From positions 1 through 64,000 of the forward strand of contig NZ_WIAX01000004.1 in the NCBI RefSeq assembly GCF_009467795.1: DNA of 64,000 nt, written 5' to 3'. A model generated the notes under the pieces. The model was not told the origin of the DNA and did not search any database. It saw only the letters and a program-made list of their open reading frames with translations. Within the stretch, counting starts at the first letter, position 1. Every line of letters begins with the position of its first letter. This document shows, piece by piece, positions 16,365 through 25,754 of the stretch. A program made the translations under genes and the position numbers. Source of the DNA: Nesterenkonia halophila. Its GTDB lineage: Bacteria; Actinomycetota; Actinomycetes; Actinomycetales; Micrococcaceae.

Positions 16365-17798
16365 ATGACGGAGCGGCTGAAGAACTTCATCGACGGCGCG
16401 TTCGTCGACGTGCCGGGCGGCGGCGAGGTCCCGGTGGTGCACCCGGCCACGGGCGAGCAGGTCGCGGTCTCGCCGGTCACGGAGTCCGCCGGCGTCGACG
16501 CCGCGTTCTCCGCGGCGGAGGCGGCGTTCGGCGGATGGTCGACGACGACGCCGGGGGAGCGGCAGCGCTGCCTGCTGCGCCTGGCCGACGCCGTCGAGGC
16601 GGACGCCGACCGGCTCGTCGAGGCCCAGCATCGCAACACCGGACAGCCCAAGGCGATCATCGCCGAGGAGGAGGTGGCCGCCGGGGCGGACCAGCTCCGT
16701 TTCTTCGCCGGGGCCGCCCGGCTGCTCGAGGGGCGCGGCGCCGGAGAGTATATGGAGGGATTCACCTCCTATGTGCGCCGGGAGCCGCTGGGCGTCATCG
16801 CCCAGGTCGCCCCGTGGAACTTCCCGCTGATGATGGCGGTGTGGAAGCTCGGCCCGGCTCTTGCCGCGGGCAACACCGTGGTGCTCAAGCCGGCGGAGAC
16901 GACGCCGGAGTCCACGCTGGTGCTCGCCGAGCTGATCGCCGAGATCTTCCCGGCCGGGGTGGTGAACATCGTCCTGGGCGACGGATCCACCGGTGAGCTG
17001 ATGAGCCGGCATCCGGCGGCGGCGATGGTGGCGCTGACCGGCTCGGTGCGGGCAGGACGTGCTGTGGGTGCCGCGGCGGGCGAGGAGCTGAAGCGGTCGC
17101 ATCTGGAGCTGGGCGGCAAGGCCCCGGCGGTGGTCTTCGCCGATGCGGACCTGCCCGCCGCGGCGAAGCAGCTGGTGGAGTTCGGCACCTTCAACGCCGG
17201 ACAGGACTGCACGGCGGTGACGCGTGTGCTGGTCGAGGAGTCGGCCCATGACGAGCTGGTCGAGCATCTGGTCGCCGCCGCCGAGGCGACGGCCACCGGT
17301 CGGGCGGACGAGTCGCAGAACGACTTCGGGCCGCTGAACAACGCGCGGCACTTCGCCGCGGTGCGCGATCGGGTGGCCGCCGTCCCGGCGCATGCGACAG
17401 TGCGCACCGGCGGTCGGCCCGTCGAGGGGTCGGAGGGCTTCTTCTACGAGCCGACGATCATCACCGGCGTGGCCCAGGACGACGCGCTGGTCCAGGAGGA
17501 GACCTTCGGGCCGGTGCTGACCGTGCAGTCGTTCTCCGATGAGCACGAGGCGCTGCGGCTGGCCAACGGCGTCGACTACGCGCTGGCCTCGAGCGTGTGG
17601 ACCGCCGATCACTCCACGGCGATGCGCGTCTCGCGGGGGCTGGACTTCGGGGCGGTCTGGGTCAACACCCATCTGTTGCTGGTGGCCGAGATGCCCCACG
17701 GCGGGTTCAAGGCCTCCGGGCACGGCAAGGACCTCTCGGTCTATTCGCTGGAGGAGTACACCCGGGTCAAGCACGTGATGCACGCGCTGGACGGCTGA
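16365..17798 (+). CDS. patD: Gamma-aminobutyraldehyde dehydrogenase
   Basis: A 477-residue NAD(P)-dependent aldehyde dehydrogenase that should oxidise 4-aminobutanal, the product of putrescine oxidation, to GABA. Family residues are the PWNFPL segment, the general base Glu in LELGGKAP and the catalytic Cys in FNAGQDCTAVTRV. This last motif and the ending YSLEEYTRVKHVM are typical of the PatD/YdcW branch rather than of betaine aldehyde dehydrogenase. The ATG at 16365 follows CAGGAGG. It is transcribed from its own operator-controlled promoter, with the TetR gene following on the opposite strand. Confidence 0.88.
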   Translation: MTERLKNFIDGAFVDVPGGGEVPVVHPATGEQVAVSPVTESAGVDAAFSAAEAAFGGWSTTTPGERQRCLLRLADAVEADADRLVEAQHRNTGQPKAIIAEEEVAAGADQLRFFAGAARLLEGRGAGEYMEGFTSYVRREPLGVIAQVAPWNFPLMMAVWKLGPALAAGNTVVLKPAETTPESTLVLAELIAEIFPAGVVNIVLGDGSTGELMSRHPAAAMVALTGSVRAGRAVGAAAGEELKRSHLELGGKAPAVVFADADLPAAAKQLVEFGTFNAGQDCTAVTRVLVEESAHDELVEHLVAAAEATATGRADESQNDFGPLNNARHFAAVRDRVAAVPAHATVRTGGRPVEGSEGFFYEPTIITGVAQDDALVQEETFGPVLTVQSFSDEHEALRLANGVDYALASSVWTADHSTAMRVSRGLDFGAVWVNTHLLLVAEMPHGGFKASGHGKDLSVYSLEEYTRVKHVMHALDG

Positions 17799-17816: not shown

Positions 17817-18551
17817 TCAGCGGGAGGGATCTCCTCGCTCGATGCGGCGGCGCAGTCCGTCGATCAGCGCGTCCAGTGTGAGCTCGAAGGCGTGGTCGGC
17901 CACCTCGCGGGCGTCGGATCCGCGGGCGGCCGCGGCCGCGGCGAATCGCGGGGCCAGGTCCGCCCGGTGGCCCGGGTCGAAGATGTCCGCCGGGGCCGAG
18001 GCGTCGTAGGCGGCGCCGAAGACCAGCGCCTCGACGCCGACGATCAGGTCCACAGCCTCCGCCCCCGGCACGCCGGCGTCCTCCAGGGCGCCGGTGACGC
18101 GCTCGTACATCTGCAGCGACTGCGGAGCGTCGGCCACGGGGAGGACCGCCATGATCGGGATGAGCGCGGTGTGGCGGATGTAGCAGTCCCGGTAGGAGCG
18201 CGCCCAGACGCGCAGCGCCTCCGGCCAGTCCAGCGTGTCGAAGCCGGTGCAGTCGATCTGTTCGTTGAGCCGGTCCTGGATGAGCACCAGCACGTCGCGC
18301 TTGGAGCTGACGTGGTTGTAGAGCGCAGATGTGGACACGCCCAGCTCGCGCGCCAGACCGGCCATGGTCAGGGAGCGGTAGTCCCGGGTGCTGACGATCC
18401 GGATCGCTGCGGCGGTGATCGTCGAGCGGGAGAGCACCGGCGAGGACGGTCGGCCGCGGCCGCGCGTGCTGCCGCCCTCCTCGCCGGAGGGCGCGCTCGG
18501 GCTCGAGCTCCGGGCGGCGGCGTCCGACGTCGGGTTCTGCTCCGAGCTCAC
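17817..18551 (-). CDS. TetR-family repressor of the polyamine genes
   Basis: A 244-residue regulator. After a disordered Ser/Pro-rich N-terminus of about 35 residues a helix-turn-helix follows: SRSTITAAAIRIVSTRDYRS then LTMAGLARELGVSTSALYNH and VSSKRDVLV. The rest is helical and resembles the ligand-binding C-terminal domain of TetR-type proteins. It reads GTG as start after GGAGGAC. It lies between the dehydrogenase and oxidase genes, whose promoters carry near-identical AATGA-N7-TCATT palindromes, so it most likely represses both. Putrescine or another pathway intermediate would be the natural inducer; this is inference. Confidence 0.88.
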   Translation of the reverse strand: MSSEQNPTSDAAARSSSPSAPSGEEGGSTRGRGRPSSPVLSRSTITAAAIRIVSTRDYRSLTMAGLARELGVSTSALYNHVSSKRDVLVLIQDRLNEQIDCTGFDTLDWPEALRVWARSYRDCYIRHTALIPIMAVLPVADAPQSLQMYERVTGALEDAGVPGAEAVDLIVGVEALVFGAAYDASAPADIFDPGHRADLAPRFAAAAAARGSDAREVADHAFELTLDALIDGLRRRIERGDPSR

Positions 18552-18707: not shown

Positions 18708-18727
18708 AATACGTGAAGGAGAACACA

Positions 18728-20128
18728 GTGTCAGCCACTCGAACCATCGGAAGCGTCGAGAGCCTGGAGCGCGACGTCGTCGTCGTGGGCGCGGGGCCCG
18801 CCGGGCTGCGGGCGGCGCGCGCCCTGGAGCAGGCCGGCCGCAGCGTCGCCGTGCTCGAGGCCCGGGACCGCGTGGGCGGCCGCACCTGGTCGGCGGAGAT
18901 CGACGGCGCCTTCCTGGAGCTCGGCGGCCAGTGGGTCTCGCCCGACCAGACCGAGCTGCTCGGCCTGCTCGAGGAGCTGGGCCTGGAGACCTTCCCGCGG
19001 CACCGTGAGGGGGCCAGCGTCTACCTGGCCCCGGACGGCTCCCGGCATGAGTTCGCCGGCGCGATGTTCCCCGCCGGGGAGGCCGCCGTCGCGGAGATGG
19101 AGCGGATCATCGGGATCCTCGACGAGCTCGCCGCCGCGATGGACCCGGCGCGTCCCTGGGCCCATCCGCAGGCCCGCGCGCTGGACACGGTCACCTTCGC
19201 CGAGTGGCTGCGCGCGCAGACCGACGACGTCGCCGCCCGCGAGAACATCGCGATCTTCCTGGCCGGAGGCATGATCACCAAGCCTGAGCACGCCTTCTCC
19301 GCGCTGCAGGCTGTCCTCATGGCCGCCTCGGCAGGCTCCTTCAGCCACCTGGTCGACGAGGACTTCATCCTCGACCGCCGCGTGATCGGCGGCATGCAGG
19401 GCGTCTCGCAGGCCATGGCCGAGCAGCTCGAGCCCGGCACCGTGCACCTGGAGACCCCGGTGCGCGCCATCGCCCACGACGCCACCGGCGTGACCGTCTG
19501 GTCGGACCGGCTGACCGTCCGCGCCCACCAGGTCATCGTGGCGGTGCCGCCGACGCTCTATTCGCGGATCAGCTTCGAGCCGCCGCTGCCGCTGCTGCAG
19601 CAGCAGATGCACCAGCACCAGTCGATGGGCCTGGTCATCAAGGTCCACGCCGTCTACGACCGCCCCTTCTGGCGGGAGAAGGGCCTCTCCGGCACCGGGT
19701 TCGGCGCCGCGGAGATCTGCCAGGAGGTCTACGACAACACCAACTACGGCGATCCGCGCGGGACGCTGGTCGCGTTCATCTCCGACGAGCAGGCCGACGC
19801 GATGTTCGCCCTGCCCGCGGCCGAGCGGCGAGCGCAGATCCTCGAGTCGCTGGCCCGTCACCTGGGCGGAGAGGCCCGCGAGCCGCTGGTCTACTACGAA
19901 TCGGACTTCGCCTCCGAGGAGTGGACCCGCGGCGCCTACGCGTCCAGCTTCGACGTGGGCGGCATCGTCCGCTACGGCGCGCACCAGCGCGAGCCCGTCG
20001 GACCCCTGCACTGGGCCTGCTCCGACCTGGCCGCCGAGGGCTTCCAGCACGTCGACGGCGCCCTGCGCCAGGGACGCCGCGCCGCCGACGACGTCCTCTC
20101 CCGGATCGCCGAGCCGGCCACCGCCTGA
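18728..20128 (+). CDS. puo: Putrescine oxidase (flavin amine oxidase)
   Basis: A 466-residue FAD enzyme that oxidises putrescine to 4-aminobutanal, ammonia and hydrogen peroxide. The dinucleotide-binding motif VVVGAGPAGLRAARALEQAG and VLEARDRVGGRTWS are at the N-terminus. LGGQWVSPDQTEL, AFSALQAVLMAASAGSFSHL, RVIGGMQGVSQAMAEQL and the C-terminal EGFQHVDGALRQGRRAADD closely follow the actinobacterial putrescine oxidases as I remember them. GTG at 18728 is chosen because AAGGAG lies 6 bases before it; an in-frame GTG at 18713 has no such site. It heads a plus-strand series with usp, an APC permease, agmatine deiminase and an amidase. Confidence 0.92.
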   Translation: MSATRTIGSVESLERDVVVVGAGPAGLRAARALEQAGRSVAVLEARDRVGGRTWSAEIDGAFLELGGQWVSPDQTELLGLLEELGLETFPRHREGASVYLAPDGSRHEFAGAMFPAGEAAVAEMERIIGILDELAAAMDPARPWAHPQARALDTVTFAEWLRAQTDDVAARENIAIFLAGGMITKPEHAFSALQAVLMAASAGSFSHLVDEDFILDRRVIGGMQGVSQAMAEQLEPGTVHLETPVRAIAHDATGVTVWSDRLTVRAHQVIVAVPPTLYSRISFEPPLPLLQQQMHQHQSMGLVIKVHAVYDRPFWREKGLSGTGFGAAEICQEVYDNTNYGDPRGTLVAFISDEQADAMFALPAAERRAQILESLARHLGGEAREPLVYYESDFASEEWTRGAYASSFDVGGIVRYGAHQREPVGPLHWACSDLAAEGFQHVDGALRQGRRAADDVLSRIAEPATA

Positions 20129-20208: not shown

Positions 20209-21186
20209 ATGACCCACGACGCCAGCCCCCATCCTGCGCCGCCCGCAGGCTCGCAGCCCGACCCTCGGTCGGATGCTCCGCTGCGCCGGATCGCCGTCGG
20301 CTTCGGCGGCGACGAGCGCAGCCGCGACGCCGTGCGGCTCGGCGCCGCCCTCGCCCGCGCCGCCGGCGCCCGGCTGGACATCGTCCTCATCGTCACGCAG
20401 GACGACCCCTTCACGGCCGTCTACCCGCCGGTGGGCAGCATCTCCGGCATCGTCGCCGACCAGGGAGCCGCCTGGCTCCGCGAGGCCGAGGAGCTGGTCC
20501 CGGCCGACGTCGACGTCACCGCCCTCGTGCGCAGAGGCGCCTCAGTGGCCGAAGGGCTCATCGCCGCCGCCGAGGAGCGCGGCGCCGACCTGCTGGTCAC
20601 CGGCTCCGGCGTCGGCGCCGGCCGCATCACCTCCCATCCGGCCGTGGAGGCGCTGGTGCACAGCTCGCCGATCCCGCTGGCCCTGGCCCCGGCCGGCTAC
20701 ACCGGCACCGACGGCGTCACCGACGTCTTCGCCGCCGTCTCCGGGACCTCGGGCCGCCACCAGGTCGTCGACGCGGCCACGGACTGGGCGGACCAGCTCG
20801 ATGCCGAACTCGTGCACGTCACGCTGCGGGCGGGCGAGTCGGCCCCGCATCCCGACGCCGGCGCCGAGACGAGGGCCGACACCGAGACCGACGCCGCGGA
20901 GCAGACTCCGCGGGCCGTCGTCGCCGTCGGACGGACCCTCGCCCAGGCGGTGCGTCGCGTCGACTGGCCGCAGGGGGCGCTGCTGCTCATGGGCTCCTCC
21001 CGGCTGGCCGGACGACGGCGCCTCTTCCTGGGGACCGTCGCCGCCCGGATCCTGAGCCGGCTGCCGATCCCGATGATCGTCATGCCGCGGCACGAGCACG
21101 AGACCGACCACACCCTCGAGACCGATCACATCGCCCATGCTCCAGGGGACGCCGTCACGGCGCCCCCGGCGGGCACCGCCCGCTGA
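20209..21186 (+). CDS. Universal stress protein, tandem UspA domains
   Basis: A 325-residue cytoplasmic protein with two UspA-like domains (about 25-165 and 170-310). The first starts RRIAVGFGGDERSRDAVRLG and ends with the nucleotide-loop-like LLVTGSGVGAGRITSHPAVE followed by LVHSSPIPLALAP. The second ends LLLMGSSRLAGRRRLFLGTV with LSRLPIPMIVMP, which fits the ATP-binding G-2X-G-9X-G-S/T pattern only loosely. An acidic His-rich tail follows. The ATG follows GAGGGAGAG. Its place between the oxidase and permease genes suggests co-regulation; peroxide made by the oxidase may explain a stress protein here, but this is inference. Confidence 0.85.
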   Translation: MTHDASPHPAPPAGSQPDPRSDAPLRRIAVGFGGDERSRDAVRLGAALARAAGARLDIVLIVTQDDPFTAVYPPVGSISGIVADQGAAWLREAEELVPADVDVTALVRRGASVAEGLIAAAEERGADLLVTGSGVGAGRITSHPAVEALVHSSPIPLALAPAGYTGTDGVTDVFAAVSGTSGRHQVVDAATDWADQLDAELVHVTLRAGESAPHPDAGAETRADTETDAAEQTPRAVVAVGRTLAQAVRRVDWPQGALLLMGSSRLAGRRRLFLGTVAARILSRLPIPMIVMPRHEHETDHTLETDHIAHAPGDAVTAPPAGTAR

Positions 21187-21201: not shown

Positions 21202-22755
21202 ATGACCCAGCAGACCAGCACCGACCCCCGTTCCGGCCCCGGAGGGGCCGTCGACGGAACGGGCCGCGACACCGACCACAGCAAGGGGCTCAGCCGCGGC
21301 GCGATCGGCGCGCTCGGCGCCGTCGTCATCGGGGTGTCCACGATCGCCCCGGCCTACACGCTCTCCGGCGCCCTCGGCCCGACGGCCTCCGCCGTGGGCG
21401 AGCACCTGCCGGCGGTGCTCATCGTCGGCTTCATCCCGATGATGCTCGTCGCTCTCGGGTACCGCGAGCTCAACCGTGCCATGCCCGACTCCGGCACCAC
21501 CTTCACCTGGGCCTCGAAGGCCTTCGGCCCCTGGATCGGCTGGATGGGCAGCTGGTGCCTGCTCGCGGCGACCATCCTGGTGCTCTCCAACCTCGCCGGC
21601 ATCGCCGTGGACTTCTTCTACCTGGCGCTGAGTCAGCTCGCCGGCGTCGAGCAGATCGCCGAGCTGACGCGCAACGTGCCGGTGAACATCCTCACCTGCC
21701 TGGTCTTCATGGCGGCCGCCGCCTGGATCTCCTGCCGCGGCATGGAGGCGACCAAGACGGTGCAGTACGTGCTGGTCTCGTTCCAGGTGCTGGTGCTCGT
21801 CTGGTTCGCCGTCGCCGCCTTCGGGCACGTCGCCGACGGCACCGCCTTCGACGCCACGCGGCTGTCCTGGGAATGGTTCAACCCGCTCGGCGTCTCCTCC
21901 TTCTCGGCCTTCGCCGCCGGCATCTCGCTGTCGGTGTTCATCTACTGGGGCTGGGACGTGGTGCTGACGATGAACGAGGAGTCCCGCGGCACCACGACGA
22001 CGCCGGGCAGGGCCGCAGTGCTGACGATCCTGGTCGTCGTCGGGCTCTACACGCTGGTCACCCTGGGCACGCTGGCCTACGCCGGCGTCTCGACCGGAGA
22101 GCACGGCCTCGGCAACCCGGAGATCCAGGGCAACGTCTTCGCCGCCCTCTCGGGACCCGTGATGGGCCCCTTTGCGATCCTCATCTCCCTGGCGGTGCTC
22201 TCGTCCTCGGCCTCCTCGCTGCAGTCGACGATGCTCTCCCCGGCGCGCACCATGCTGGCCATGGGCCACTACGGAGCGCTGAGCGAGAAGTACGCCCGGA
22301 TCAGCCCGAAGCACCAGACCCCCGCCTACGCGACGATCGTCGCGGTGCTCATCGCCTCGGTCTTCTACGCGGTGATGCGCGTGGTCTCGGAGAACGTCCT
22401 CTGGGACACCATCACCACGCTGGGGATGATGGTCTGCTTCTACTACGGCGTCACGGCCCTGGCCTGCGTCTGGTATTTCCGTCACGAGGCGACCCGCTCG
22501 GTGCGGGAGTTCCTCTCCAAGCTCGCGGCCCCGCTGGTCGGCGGGGTCCTGCTGCTGATCTTCTTCTTCCAGACCGCCTGGGACTCGATGGACCCGGCCT
22601 ACGGCTCGGGGTCGGAGATCGGGGGAGTCGGGCTGGTCTTCATCCTCGGCGTGCTGATCTTCGTGCTCGGCGTGGCCGCGATGCTCTACCAGCACCGGCG
22701 TCGTCCGGAGTTCTTCCGCCGCCGCTTCGAGACGTCCGAACACCTGACCGTCTGA
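21202..22755 (+). CDS. APC-superfamily amino acid/polyamine permease
   Basis: A 517-residue membrane transporter with about 12 predicted spans after a 30-residue polar N-terminus. The first span carries GVSTIAPAYTLSGALGPTAS, a typical APC unwound-helix region, and LGYRELNRAMPDSGTTFTWA follows as in this family. Position between putrescine oxidase and agmatine deiminase makes putrescine or agmatine the likely cargo. It starts 15 bases after the usp gene behind GAGGAGAAGG. Confidence 0.9.
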   Translation: MTQQTSTDPRSGPGGAVDGTGRDTDHSKGLSRGAIGALGAVVIGVSTIAPAYTLSGALGPTASAVGEHLPAVLIVGFIPMMLVALGYRELNRAMPDSGTTFTWASKAFGPWIGWMGSWCLLAATILVLSNLAGIAVDFFYLALSQLAGVEQIAELTRNVPVNILTCLVFMAAAAWISCRGMEATKTVQYVLVSFQVLVLVWFAVAAFGHVADGTAFDATRLSWEWFNPLGVSSFSAFAAGISLSVFIYWGWDVVLTMNEESRGTTTTPGRAAVLTILVVVGLYTLVTLGTLAYAGVSTGEHGLGNPEIQGNVFAALSGPVMGPFAILISLAVLSSSASSLQSTMLSPARTMLAMGHYGALSEKYARISPKHQTPAYATIVAVLIASVFYAVMRVVSENVLWDTITTLGMMVCFYYGVTALACVWYFRHEATRSVREFLSKLAAPLVGGVLLLIFFFQTAWDSMDPAYGSGSEIGGVGLVFILGVLIFVLGVAAMLYQHRRRPEFFRRRFETSEHLTV

Positions 22756-22878: not shown

Positions 22879-24000
22879 ATGACCTCCACCGCCCCGTCCT
22901 CGCCCGCCCCGTCCTCGACGGCCGCCGTCACGGTCATGCCCCCGGAGTGGGCACCGCACGACCGCACCTGGATGGCGTTCCCACCGGCCAACGAGACCTT
23001 CGGCCCGCAGAGCTCGGAGTCCCTGGCCCGGGCACGGCGGGCCTGGACCCGCGTGGCGCGCACCATCGCCGCCGCCGAACCGGTGACTGTGGTGGCCGAC
23101 CCCGCCGACGCCGACGTCGCCCGGCAGTCGCTGGGCGAGGTCGCCGAGATCCTGCCCGTCTGTCTCGACGACGCGTGGATGCGCGACATCGGACTGACCT
23201 TCGTGCACACCGCCGCCGGTGACGTGCTCGGCGTGGACTGGCTCTTCAACGGCTGGGGCGACCAGCCCTGGGCCCCGCACGAGCGGGATGCGCAGGTCGG
23301 CGCCGCGATGGCCGGGCCCGCCGGCGTCGAACGGATCGGCAGTCGGCTGGTCAATGAGGGCGGAGCCTTCCACGTGGACGGCCGCGGCACCGTGCTGCTC
23401 ACTCGCACCGTGCAGTGCGACCCGGACCGCAATCCCGATCTGACCGCCGAACAGATCGAGCAGGAGATCCACGCACGACTGGGCACCCGCCACGCCGTCT
23501 GGTTCCCGCGCGGGCTGACTCGCGACTACGAGGAGTTCGGCACCCGCGGGCACGTCGACATGTTCGCCTGCTTCACGCCGTCCGGCGCGGTGCTGCTGCA
23601 CCGCCAGGACGACCCGGCCCACCCCGACCACGAGGTCACCCGGCAGATGCGCGAGGTGCTGGAGGGCGCGGTCGACGCCGACGGCAGGCCGTTGCGGATC
23701 ATCGACGTGCCGGCCCCGCGCACCCTCCGCGACGAGGGGGAGTTCGTCGACTGGACCTACATCAACCACTACGTCGCCGACGGGGTGGTGGTGCTCTGCA
23801 GCTACGACGACCCGCACGACGAGCAGGCCGCGGCGATCCTCGCCGAGGCCTATCCGGACCGTCGGGTGGAGCTGGTCGACGCCCGCGACATCCTGCGCTT
23901 CGGCGGCGGGATCCACTGCATCACCCAGCAGCAGCCGCGGGCGCGCGGCGCAGAACGCGCGGACGGCGCGGACGGCGCGGACAGCGAGGTGCGGGGATGA
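22879..24000 (+). CDS. aguA: Agmatine deiminase
   Basis: A 373-residue member of the peptidyl-arginine/agmatine deiminase family. It should hydrolyse agmatine to N-carbamoylputrescine and ammonia. Active-site segments are DDAWMRDIG, the His in RGHVDMFACF and the nucleophile Cys347 in GGGIHCITQQQP. Length and the N-terminal MPPEWAPHDRTWMAFP match the family. The C-terminus is a small repeat (ADGADGADSEVRG). It is preceded by a 123-base gap with no clear promoter and overlaps the amidase start by four bases (ATGA), so both enzymes are co-translated. Confidence 0.9.
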   Translation: MTSTAPSSPAPSSTAAVTVMPPEWAPHDRTWMAFPPANETFGPQSSESLARARRAWTRVARTIAAAEPVTVVADPADADVARQSLGEVAEILPVCLDDAWMRDIGLTFVHTAAGDVLGVDWLFNGWGDQPWAPHERDAQVGAAMAGPAGVERIGSRLVNEGGAFHVDGRGTVLLTRTVQCDPDRNPDLTAEQIEQEIHARLGTRHAVWFPRGLTRDYEEFGTRGHVDMFACFTPSGAVLLHRQDDPAHPDHEVTRQMREVLEGAVDADGRPLRIIDVPAPRTLRDEGEFVDWTYINHYVADGVVVLCSYDDPHDEQAAAILAEAYPDRRVELVDARDILRFGGGIHCITQQQPRARGAERADGADGADSEVRG

Positions 24001-25754
24001 GTGCAGGATTCGACGTCGTCGAGGCGACGATCCCGCAGCTGCGCGCGGCGCTGGAGCACGGCGAGACCACCAGCGAGGAGCTGGTGCGCGCCCACCTGGC
24101 GCGCATCGAGTCCTATGACCGGTCGGGCCCGAGACTCAACGCCGTCCCGGTGCTCAATCCGGCGGTGCTGGCCGAGGCCCGCGCCTCGGACGCTCGACGC
24201 GCCGCCGGCGAGGCGCGCGGTCCGCTCGAGGGCATCCCGTACACGGCGAAGGACAGCTACCAGGCCGCCGGGCTGCCGGTCTCGGCGGGGTCGCCGGCAT
24301 TCGCCGAGCTCATCGCGCAGCGGGACTCCTTCACCGTGGAACGGCTGCGCGCCTCCGGGGCGGTGCTGATCGGGCTGACCACCATGCCGCCGATGGCCAA
24401 CGGCGGCATGCAGCGCGGGCTGCACGGCCGGGCCGAGAGCCCCTACTCGCAGGACTGGCTCACCTCGGCCTTCGCCTCCGGCTCCTCGAACGGATCCGGC
24501 ACCGCGACGGCGGCGAGCTTCGCAGTCTTCGGCCTGGCCGAGGAGACCTGGTCCTCCGGGCGGGCCCCGGCCTCGCACAACGGGCTCTGCGCCTACACCC
24601 CGTCCTGGGGCATGATCTCCGTCCGCGGCAACTGGCCGCTGGTGCCGACGATGGACGTGGTGGTCCCGCACACCCGCACGATGACCGACATGCTCGAGCT
24701 GCTCGACGTCATCGTCGTCGACGACGCCGAGACCCGCGGCGACTTCTGGCGCGTCCAGCCGTGGATCGACCTGCCCCGGGCCAGCACCGTGCGTCCGTCG
24801 ACGTTCACCGCGCTGCGCCCGAACTCCGCCGAGGAGGCTGTCGCCGTCCTGGACGGGCTGCGCATCGGGGCGCCGGGGATGTACCTGAACGCCGACCCTG
24901 AGGCCGGCACTTCCGCGCCCGATGCGCACGGGGTCACCGGCATCGGCGGCTCCACCGGCCGGCCGGTGACCACCCGCGCCAGCGTCCTCGAGCTCTGGGA
25001 GGCCGCCCGCCGGGACCTCGAAGGGCATGGCGCCGACGTGCGGCTGACCGACCTGCCGGTGGTGACCAACTACGAGGGCGACCGGCCGGGGGCGCCGACG
25101 ATCGCCTCCCGCGGGCTGGTCTCCCGCGCGTACCTCGCCCGCGAGATCCGCGAACTCTCCGCCTGGGCCTGGGACGACTTCCTCGCCGCCAACGGCGACC
25201 CGCGGCTGCACCGGCTGGCCGACGTCGACGGTGCGCGGATCTCTCCGCATCCCGAGGGCGCGCTGCCGGACCGCTACGACGGATTCGACGACGACATCGC
25301 GGCCTATCCCCAGGTCCTGCGCGAGCACCCGGGCCTGCGGATGGAGGACATCCCGCACCTCGCCGAGGGGCTGCGCGGGCTGGTCCGGACGCGGGAGGCC
25401 GACCTCGAGCAGTGGATGGAGGACCAGGGTCTGGACGTGCTGGCCTTCCCGGCGATGGCCGACGTCGGCCCGGCGGACGCGGACCGGAACCCCGCCTCCG
25501 CCGAGCTCGCCTGGCGCAACGGCGTCTGGGTGGCCAACGGGAACCTCGTATGGCGTCATCTGGGCATCCCCACGGTGACGGTGCCGATGGGCACGATGGC
25601 CGACACCGGGATGCCGGTGGGGCTGACCTTCGCCGGCCGGGCCCACGACGACGTCGCCCTGCTGCGCGTCGCCGCCGCCTTCGAGGCGCTCGGATCCCGA
25701 CGCACCGAGCCTCCCCGCACTCGGCGGGCGGGGTCGGGAGAGACTCCGGCGTAG
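23997..25754 (+). CDS. Amidase-signature hydrolase paired with agmatine deiminase
   Basis: A 585-residue amidase-signature enzyme. The Ser-cisSer-Lys triad can be placed as Lys85 (PYTAKDSY), Ser163 (ASGSSNGSG) and Ser187 (EETWSSGRAPAS), with the usual 24-residue spacing between the two serines. The loop around the nucleophile, TWSSGR, differs from the common TGGSIR. It is translationally coupled to agmatine deiminase. In the known pathway N-carbamoylputrescine is cleaved by a nitrilase-fold enzyme (AguB), which is absent from this window, so this protein may do that step. That role is inference; another amide is possible. Confidence 0.8.
   Translation: MSAGFDVVEATIPQLRAALEHGETTSEELVRAHLARIESYDRSGPRLNAVPVLNPAVLAEARASDARRAAGEARGPLEGIPYTAKDSYQAAGLPVSAGSPAFAELIAQRDSFTVERLRASGAVLIGLTTMPPMANGGMQRGLHGRAESPYSQDWLTSAFASGSSNGSGTATAASFAVFGLAEETWSSGRAPASHNGLCAYTPSWGMISVRGNWPLVPTMDVVVPHTRTMTDMLELLDVIVVDDAETRGDFWRVQPWIDLPRASTVRPSTFTALRPNSAEEAVAVLDGLRIGAPGMYLNADPEAGTSAPDAHGVTGIGGSTGRPVTTRASVLELWEAARRDLEGHGADVRLTDLPVVTNYEGDRPGAPTIASRGLVSRAYLAREIRELSAWAWDDFLAANGDPRLHRLADVDGARISPHPEGALPDRYDGFDDDIAAYPQVLREHPGLRMEDIPHLAEGLRGLVRTREADLEQWMEDQGLDVLAFPAMADVGPADADRNPASAELAWRNGVWVANGNLVWRHLGIPTVTVPMGTMADTGMPVGLTFAGRAHDDVALLRVAAAFEALGSRRTEPPRTRRAGSGETPA

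What the first reader, a model, noticed from the sequence alone, without database searches (positions are those of the whole stretch)
22879..25754. Agmatine deiminase coupled to an amidase-signature enzyme instead of AguB
Agmatine deiminase makes N-carbamoylputrescine, which is normally cleaved by the nitrilase-fold AguB. Here the deiminase start-stop overlap is with an amidase-signature protein (Lys85, Ser163, Ser187) whose nucleophile loop TWSSGR departs from TGGSIR. With putrescine oxidase and the aldehyde dehydrogenase upstream, the cluster would be a full agmatine-to-GABA route if this enzyme replaces AguB. That would be a non-orthologous replacement.
Basis: partly seen in the sequence, partly recalled or inferred. 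Interest (0 to 1): 0.7.

Follow-up and report, generated by a model that had tools for sequence, protein, structure and literature searches.

The report
Amidase-type AguY beside agmatine deiminase
This actinobacterium appears to break down agmatine with a deiminase and an amidase that stands in for the usual AguB enzyme; the replacement is real, but it was already found and assayed in related bacteria in 2025, where the enzyme was named AguY.

Summary
In detail: aguA (22879-24000) overlaps by ATGA an amidase-signature gene (23997-25754) with K85, S163, S187 and TWSSGR. The window gene is an AguY orthologue: NF005127 931 bits, cut-off 575; about 64% identical to Tse8, the toxin the paper derives from AguY; TWSSGR is the family signature (80 of 81). 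With a permease, putrescine oxidase and aminobutyraldehyde dehydrogenase nearby, agmatine to GABA is the likely route. Added here: of 82 AguA genes in the window's family, 37 have AguY downstream, 30 a nitrilase upstream, 0 both, 15 neither; on the AguA tree the partner changed at least twice. Side lead: an AguY-like clade in the genus, linked to dihydropyrimidinase in 4 of 7 loci, lacks three acidic residues conserved in AguY. AguB (TIGR03381) is over cut-off in 0 of 149 family genomes; the own genome is only 65.5% complete.

The parts
22879..24000 (+). aguA, agmatine deiminase; Cys347, His225 and Glu160 conserved
   Evidence: PF04371 341 bits; PDB agmatine deiminases, best E 6.3e-59; C347, H225, E160 invariant in 67 of 67 aligned AguA with a partner; TIGR03380 260 bits, below its cut-off 381.8. 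Catalytic roles of these residues are recalled.
23997..25754 (+). aguY, amidase-signature N-carbamoylputrescine amidohydrolase (activity inferred); K85-S163-S187, loop TWSSGR
   Evidence: NF005127 931 bits over cut-off 575; Tse8 (6te4) E 1.2e-229; orthologues assayed in PMC12283126
23997..24000 (+). ATGA stop-start overlap of aguA and aguY
21202..22755 (+). APC-family permease, probable agmatine or putrescine uptake (inferred)
   Evidence: PF13520 96 bits; 76-81% identical genes in front of aguA in Nesterenkonia L006, L012 and Nocardiopsis L007, L016, L026, L034, L072
20209..21186 (+). universal stress protein, two Usp stretches; role unknown
   Evidence: PF00582 71 bits, two stretches
18713..20128 (+). 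putrescine oxidase (flavin amine oxidase)
   Evidence: PDB 2yg3 putrescine oxidase E 2.6e-198; PF01593 272 bits
17817..18551 (-). TetR-type regulator, divergent from the putrescine oxidase gene
   Evidence: PF02909, PF00440; same place in Nesterenkonia and Nocardiopsis loci
16365..17798 (+). aminobutyraldehyde dehydrogenase
   Evidence: NF010000 641 bits over cut-off 615; below the stricter TIGR03374 cut-off (521 of 909); PDB 1wnb E 2.6e-144, 6c43 gamma-aminobutyraldehyde dehydrogenase E 1.4e-139

Best explanation
aguA and aguY form a two-step pathway. [quoted passage not shown] AguY, a Ser-cisSer-Lys amidase, attacks the ureido carbonyl with S187 (S163 and K85 as the relay) and yields putrescine, ammonia and CO2, the job that nitrilase-fold AguB does elsewhere. 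Here the pair is catabolic: the permease brings in agmatine or putrescine, putrescine oxidase makes 4-aminobutanal, and aminobutyraldehyde dehydrogenase makes GABA; the TetR protein probably senses one of these compounds. Shown: the genes, their order, family membership, and (in the paper) the activity of two orthologues. Inferred: activity of this very protein, residue roles, uptake, regulation and direction of flow. E147, D432 and D496, conserved in AguY but lost in a paralogue clade, are candidates for holding the free ammonium group of the substrate (inference).
For: Sequence family: NF005127 931 bits; the 80 best related loci are 65-75% identical, 71 of them 69% or more. Assay of orthologues: PMC12283126, kcat/Km 641,800 per M per s for Microterricola gilva AguY and 179,400 for S. 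oneidensis AguY against 82,500 for P. aeruginosa AguB. Genomic coupling: AguA adjacent, same strand, in 58 of 80 loci, upstream in 55, downstream in 3; of the 22 genomes without adjacency, 21 have a PF04371 gene elsewhere. Exchange of partners: 82 AguA genes, 37 with AguY, 30 with a nitrilase, 0 with both, 15 with neither. AguB over cut-off in 0 of 149 family genomes and 0 of 38 genomes with an AguA-AguY pair; the control passes in 2 of 14 named genomes. Catabolic cluster: putrescine oxidase in 11 of 80 loci, oxidase plus dehydrogenase in 7 of 80 (2 Nesterenkonia, 5 Nocardiopsis). The window protein falls in a clade of 6 rows, all aguA-adjacent (100/99, tree of 43 rows). SpeA-type arginine decarboxylase (TIGR01273) is over cut-off in 0 of 30 genus genomes, control 5 of 14, which fits uptake rather than synthesis.
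Against: This protein has not been assayed. AguA scores below the TIGR03380 cut-off (260 of 381.8 bits), so its substrate rests on PF04371, kin and context. NF005127 also covers a paralogue clade of the genus in a different cluster, so the family hit alone does not prove the substrate. AguY occurs without adjacent AguA in 22 of 80 loci, and in 1 of 22 such genomes (L084) no PF04371 gene was found. Agmatinase is over cut-off in 16 of 30 genus genomes, 3 of which have the AguA-AguY pair. The SpeA test covers one type of arginine decarboxylase only. The own genome is 65.5% complete.
Confidence: 0.92

Rival explanations
1. The amidase acts on a different amide or ureido compound, and AguA's product is finished by a nitrilase elsewhere in the genome.
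For: The own genome has two nitrilase-family genes, at 74 and 71 bits to TIGR03381, and a third of it is missing. AguA-adjacent nitrilases exist in 30 of 82 cases in the family. AguY-like paralogues in the genus sit in a dihydropyrimidinase cluster.
Against: Neither own nitrilase is near the AguB cut-off (410 bits) or on the contig of aguA; nitrilases that do pair with AguA score 157-205 bits. AguA was never found with both partners (0 of 82). Orthologues were assayed and act on N-carbamoylputrescine (PMC12283126).
Confidence: 0.05
2. The AguA homologue works on another guanidino compound, and the amidase on the matching ureido product.
For: TIGR03380 is not passed.
Against: Putrescine oxidase and aminobutyraldehyde dehydrogenase in the same cluster, here and in 7 of 80 loci, point to putrescine as the product; C347, H225 and E160 of AguA are invariant in 67 of 67.
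Confidence: 0.02
3. The amidase is a Tse8-like translation-blocking effector and its place next to aguA is incidental.
For: Closest solved relative is Tse8 (E 1.2e-229), about 64% identical.
Against: It overlaps aguA here, and orthologues are adjacent to AguA in 58 of 80 loci; the paper places Tse8 as one branch inside AguY and reports enzyme activity for two AguA-linked members. Type VI secretion is not known from actinobacteria (recalled). No search for secretion or immunity genes was made.
Confidence: 0.01

Closest known systems
AguY, alternative N-carbamoylputrescine amidohydrolase (PMC12283126, Li et al. 2025)
   Same: Amidase-signature protein of about 570-585 aa, gene directly downstream of aguA, reported from Actinomycetota among others.
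   Different: This copy is not assayed; it stands in a cluster with putrescine oxidase and aminobutyraldehyde dehydrogenase; 'putrescine oxidase' occurs 0 times in that paper's main text.
Tse8 (PDB 6te4, 6yhv), type VI effector of Pseudomonas aeruginosa
   Same: Same family, about 64% identical; nested inside AguY in the paper's tree.
   Different: Tse8 is secreted and its gene is not next to aguA (paper).
AguB, canonical nitrilase-fold N-carbamoylputrescine amidohydrolase (TIGR03381)
   Same: Same reaction.
   Different: Unrelated fold; about half the size.
Nitrilases directly upstream of aguA in other members of the family (30 of 82 AguA genes)
   Same: Same place in the pathway, judged by context.
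   Different: Nitrilase family, 157-205 bits and so below the TIGR03381 cut-off, gene upstream instead of downstream of aguA.
Agmatine and putrescine degradation in Arthrobacter sp. Rue61a (PMC3534580, passages seen)
   Same: Agmatine to putrescine to GABA; growth on agmatine reported.
   Different: The agmatine pathway is rated incomplete in the genome-based table and the text assigns the second step to AguB; whether that strain has AguY was not checked here.

Membership tests
AguY (amidase-type N-carbamoylputrescine amidohydrolase) | Sequence relation to the assayed AguY enzymes | tested here: met
   Indirect: NF005127 931 bits over cut-off 575; about 64% identical to Tse8, which the paper gives as 85% and 69% identical to the two assayed enzymes. 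The assayed sequences themselves were not at hand.
AguY (amidase-type N-carbamoylputrescine amidohydrolase) | Gene next to aguA | tested here: met
   4-base overlap
AguY (amidase-type N-carbamoylputrescine amidohydrolase) | Lys, Ser, Ser of the amidase triad and TWSSGR loop as in orthologues | tested here: met
   K85, S163, S187 in 81 of 81; TWSSGR in 80 of 81
AguY (amidase-type N-carbamoylputrescine amidohydrolase) | Falls with aguA-linked members, not with the paralogue clade | tested here: met
   Clade of 6 aguA-adjacent rows, 100/99; paralogue clade of 7 set apart at 100/100
AguY (amidase-type N-carbamoylputrescine amidohydrolase) | Hydrolysis of N-carbamoylputrescine to putrescine | not testable with these tools
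   Needs purified protein
AguB (TIGR03381) | Nitrilase fold, score over cut-off | tested here: not met
   The protein is a PF01425 amidase; no gene found in the own draft genome passes TIGR03381
Agmatine deiminase AguA | PF04371 and conserved active-site positions | tested here: met
   341 bits, cut-off 25; C347, H225, E160 invariant in 67 of 67
Agmatine deiminase AguA | TIGR03380 equivalog cut-off | tested here: not met
   260.4 of 381.8 bits
Putrescine oxidase | Close sequence match to solved putrescine oxidases | tested here: met
   2yg3 E 2.6e-198 over residues 16-464
Tse8 effector | Secretion by a type VI system and an immunity gene next door | not tested
   No search for either was made

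The most novel reading that the evidence does not exclude
AguY is one branch of a wider set of ureido- or amide-cleaving amidases. In the window's genus a sister clade of 7 (47-51% identical to the window protein) has left agmatine metabolism: in 4 of its 7 loci (L085, L172, L174, L175) it is linked to a dihydropyrimidinase, a nitrilase, an ABC transporter and an LLM-type oxidoreductase; 2 of the other 3 are cut by contig ends. E147, D432 and D496, conserved in AguY (80, 81 and 81 of 81) and kept in the distant but aguA-linked L086, are R/H, F/Y and F in this clade. It would be a new hydrolase of a heterocycle-degrading pathway, and the three acids would be the specificity switch. The loop alone does not separate the two, as L086 also reads TVSSGR.
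Probability: 0.4. Interest if true: 0.45.

Novelty: already known. Interest (0 to 1): 0.25.

Why it matters
It extends to a further genus the finding that the second step of agmatine breakdown has been taken over by an unrelated enzyme, and puts that enzyme into a complete agmatine-to-GABA gene cluster. The one-or-the-other pattern of AguY and nitrilase beside AguA within one bacterial family makes a good natural case of enzyme replacement. The matching NCBIfam model is still named just 'amidase' (NF005127), so the label could be improved, with care for the paralogue clade.

Tried and rejected
Tried and dropped: that AguB hides elsewhere in the genome (no gene over cut-off; weak because the draft is 65.5% complete). 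That NF005127 alone proves function (given up after the paralogue clade turned up). Structure prediction was not run, since a solved relative at about 64% identity exists. Paper searches: 'Tse8' with 'amidase' 10 papers (one read in part); 'agmatine deiminase' with 'putrescine oxidase' 5 papers, passages of one seen; 'AguY' 45 papers, 20 listed, of which by title one is about the enzyme; 'carbamoylputrescine' with 'amidase signature' 0; 'carbamoylputrescine' with 'Arthrobacter' 3, listing only apart from PMC3534580. The gene downstream of aguY was not analysed.

Counting notes. One search used the 82 PF04371 rows of 280 bits or more; the 26 other rows listed there (251 bits or less: other subfamilies and fragments) were left out. 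It used 48 AguY rows, one of which (G145, a gene cut by its contig end, 566 bits) is under the cut-off of 575 and counts among the 37 pairs; G063 and G106 count through pieces whose sum passes. It used the 50 nitrilase rows of 157 bits or more. Afterwards 100 weaker listed rows were compared with 40 of the 82 AguA places: none lies within 35 kb; the other 42 places I compared by eye only, and rows that one search did not list could not be compared. All 80 loci were used. In one search adjacency means the nearest ends within 1.5 kb, AguA at least 45% identical over 300 residues. One search dropped the 14 AguA rows with neither partner; with them (81 rows, G026 left out as a fragment) the AguY label needs 6 changes. 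One search used 31 of the 80 loci, plus the window and 11 further rows. The 38 genomes and the 22 were chosen by me from the 80 loci. The 64% identity to Tse8 is a count of identical letters in a printed alignment line (365 over about 572 residues).

Full report
What is in the window. aguA lies at 22879-24000 and an amidase gene at 23997-25754, both on the + strand, sharing ATGA. Upstream on the + strand are an APC permease (21202-22755), a universal stress protein (20209-21186) and a putrescine oxidase (18713-20128); then a TetR gene on the - strand (17817-18551) and an aminobutyraldehyde dehydrogenase on the + strand (16365-17798). The gaps from oxidase to aguA are short (80, 15 and 123 bases), so one transcript is likely but not shown; the dehydrogenase is probably a separate unit because the TetR gene lies between.

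What the amidase is. It passes NCBIfam NF005127 ('amidase', 931 bits, cut-off 575). Its best solved relative is Tse8 (6te4, E 1.2e-229), about 365 identical of 572 aligned residues by a count of the printed alignment. A paper search for Tse8 and amidase found PMC12283126, of which I read the abstract and parts 1-3 of 5 of the text and searched the rest for six terms. It reports that amidase genes next to aguA in Proteobacteria and Actinomycetota encode a new N-carbamoylputrescine amidohydrolase, AguY; that S. oneidensis and Microterricola gilva AguY are active in vitro (kcat/Km 179,400 and 641,800 per M per s; P. aeruginosa AguB 82,500); and that Tse8 evolved from AguY.

Orthologues. AguA lies next to AguY on the same strand in 58 of 80, upstream in 55 and downstream in 3; 22 have no adjacent AguA. 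Of those 22 genomes, 21 have a PF04371 gene elsewhere. Putrescine oxidase is found in 11 of 80 loci and oxidase plus dehydrogenase in 7 of 80: Nesterenkonia (L006, L012) and Nocardiopsis (L007, L016, L026, L034, L072). Two same-genus genomes, G041 and G086, have contigs of the same lengths (238147 and 525472) as those of Nesterenkonia sandarakina and Nesterenkonia sp. LB17, so the window is probably from a Nesterenkonia (inference).

Replacement of AguB. In 149 genomes of the family, NF005127 is over cut-off in 46 and TIGR03381 (AguB) in 0; PF04371 is found in 97. Among 82 AguA genes of 280 bits or more, in 77 genomes, 37 have AguY within 3 kb (always downstream, same strand), 30 have a nitrilase of 157-205 bits (always upstream, same strand), 0 have both and 15 neither; one genome (G083) has both kinds of pair at separate places. 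Of the 15 with neither, 8 lie in genomes with an unpaired AguY elsewhere (in G122 about 8 kb away) and 1 (G108) in a genome with a separate AguA-AguY pair. On a tree of 67 AguA with a partner, the partner label changes 2 times, which starred branches also force as the least, against a mean of 22 in shuffles. One lineage has the order aguA, permease, aguY (L086), and its AguA lies among nitrilase-paired ones. In 38 further genomes with an AguA-AguY pair, chosen from the 80 loci, 0 pass TIGR03381. The AguA-paired nitrilases are far below that strict cut-off too, so 'no AguB over cut-off' does not mean that no nitrilase of the family does this job. The two own nitrilases score 74 and 71 bits and lie on other contigs than aguA. 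The own genome is only 65.5% complete. The paper describes species of Shewanella with AguB and others with AguY, so the pattern is an extension, not a first.

Direction. SpeA-type arginine decarboxylase is over cut-off in 0 of 30 genus genomes, which agrees with catabolism of imported agmatine, as the paper proposes for genomes without a decarboxylase. Other decarboxylase types were not searched. Agmatinase is over cut-off in 16 of 30 genus genomes, G041, G086 and G104 with the AguA-AguY pair among them, and has no match in the own draft. Arthrobacter sp. Rue61a grows on agmatine although the pathway is rated incomplete from its genome (PMC3534580, passages).

A paralogue clade. Eight NF005127 genes score 645-723 bits in the genomes. 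I read all 8 loci (L085, L171-L177). In 4 of them (L085, L172, L174, L175) the gene is linked to a nitrilase, a dihydropyrimidinase (TIGR02033 533 bits over cut-off 393 in L085), an LLM oxidoreductase and an ABC transporter, with an F420 glucose-6-phosphate dehydrogenase in 3 of the 4. L171 and L176 are cut by contig ends; L173 and L177 lack the cluster. The 7 members from the genus form one clade apart from AguY (100/100). They keep K85, S163 and S187 but read TVSSGR (6) or TLSSGR (1), and E147, D432 and D496 are R/H, F/Y and F. The aguA-linked but distant L086 keeps all three acids, though it also reads TVSSGR. E147 is E in 80 of 81 AguY rows and K in 1; D432 and D496 are D in 81 of 81. L177 (G048, with only a weaker PF04371 gene of 237 bits) keeps D496 but not the other two. 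I read the acids as candidates for binding the substrate's ammonium group; this is inference. Whether this clade is in print was not searched.

Verdict. A correct hypothesis, already established for orthologues. The window adds a member in a fuller catabolic cluster. Interest is low for the core and moderate for the partner exchange and the paralogue clade.

Noticed in passing
L085:7745-19900, L172, L174, L175: AguY-like paralogue linked to dihydropyrimidinase, nitrilase, ABC transporter and LLM oxidoreductase in 4 of 8 loci read; three acidic positions differ from AguY.
   Followed up: partly
L086:7311-11992 (G072): Order aguA, APC permease (58% identical to the window's), aguY, in a lineage whose AguA lies among nitrilase-paired AguA; its AguY is only 53% identical to the window's.
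   Followed up: partly
L087:6264-9831 (G030): A second AguY copy preceded by an APC permease (57% identical to the window's) but with no AguA within 3 kb.
   Followed up: no
genomes of L029, L037, L039, L041, L045, L053, L054, L065, L070 (Streptomyces, Kitasatospora, Yinghuangia): These genomes carry 2 to 9 PF04371 matches each, some in tandem groups, none adjacent to AguY.
   Followed up: no
window 20209-21186: A two-stretch universal stress protein sits inside the polyamine cluster, also in L006, L012 (Nesterenkonia), L069 (Kocuria sp.) and L052 (Citricoccus).
   Followed up: no
L084 (Amylibacter cionae): AguY orthologue in a genome where no PF04371 gene was found.
   Followed up: no
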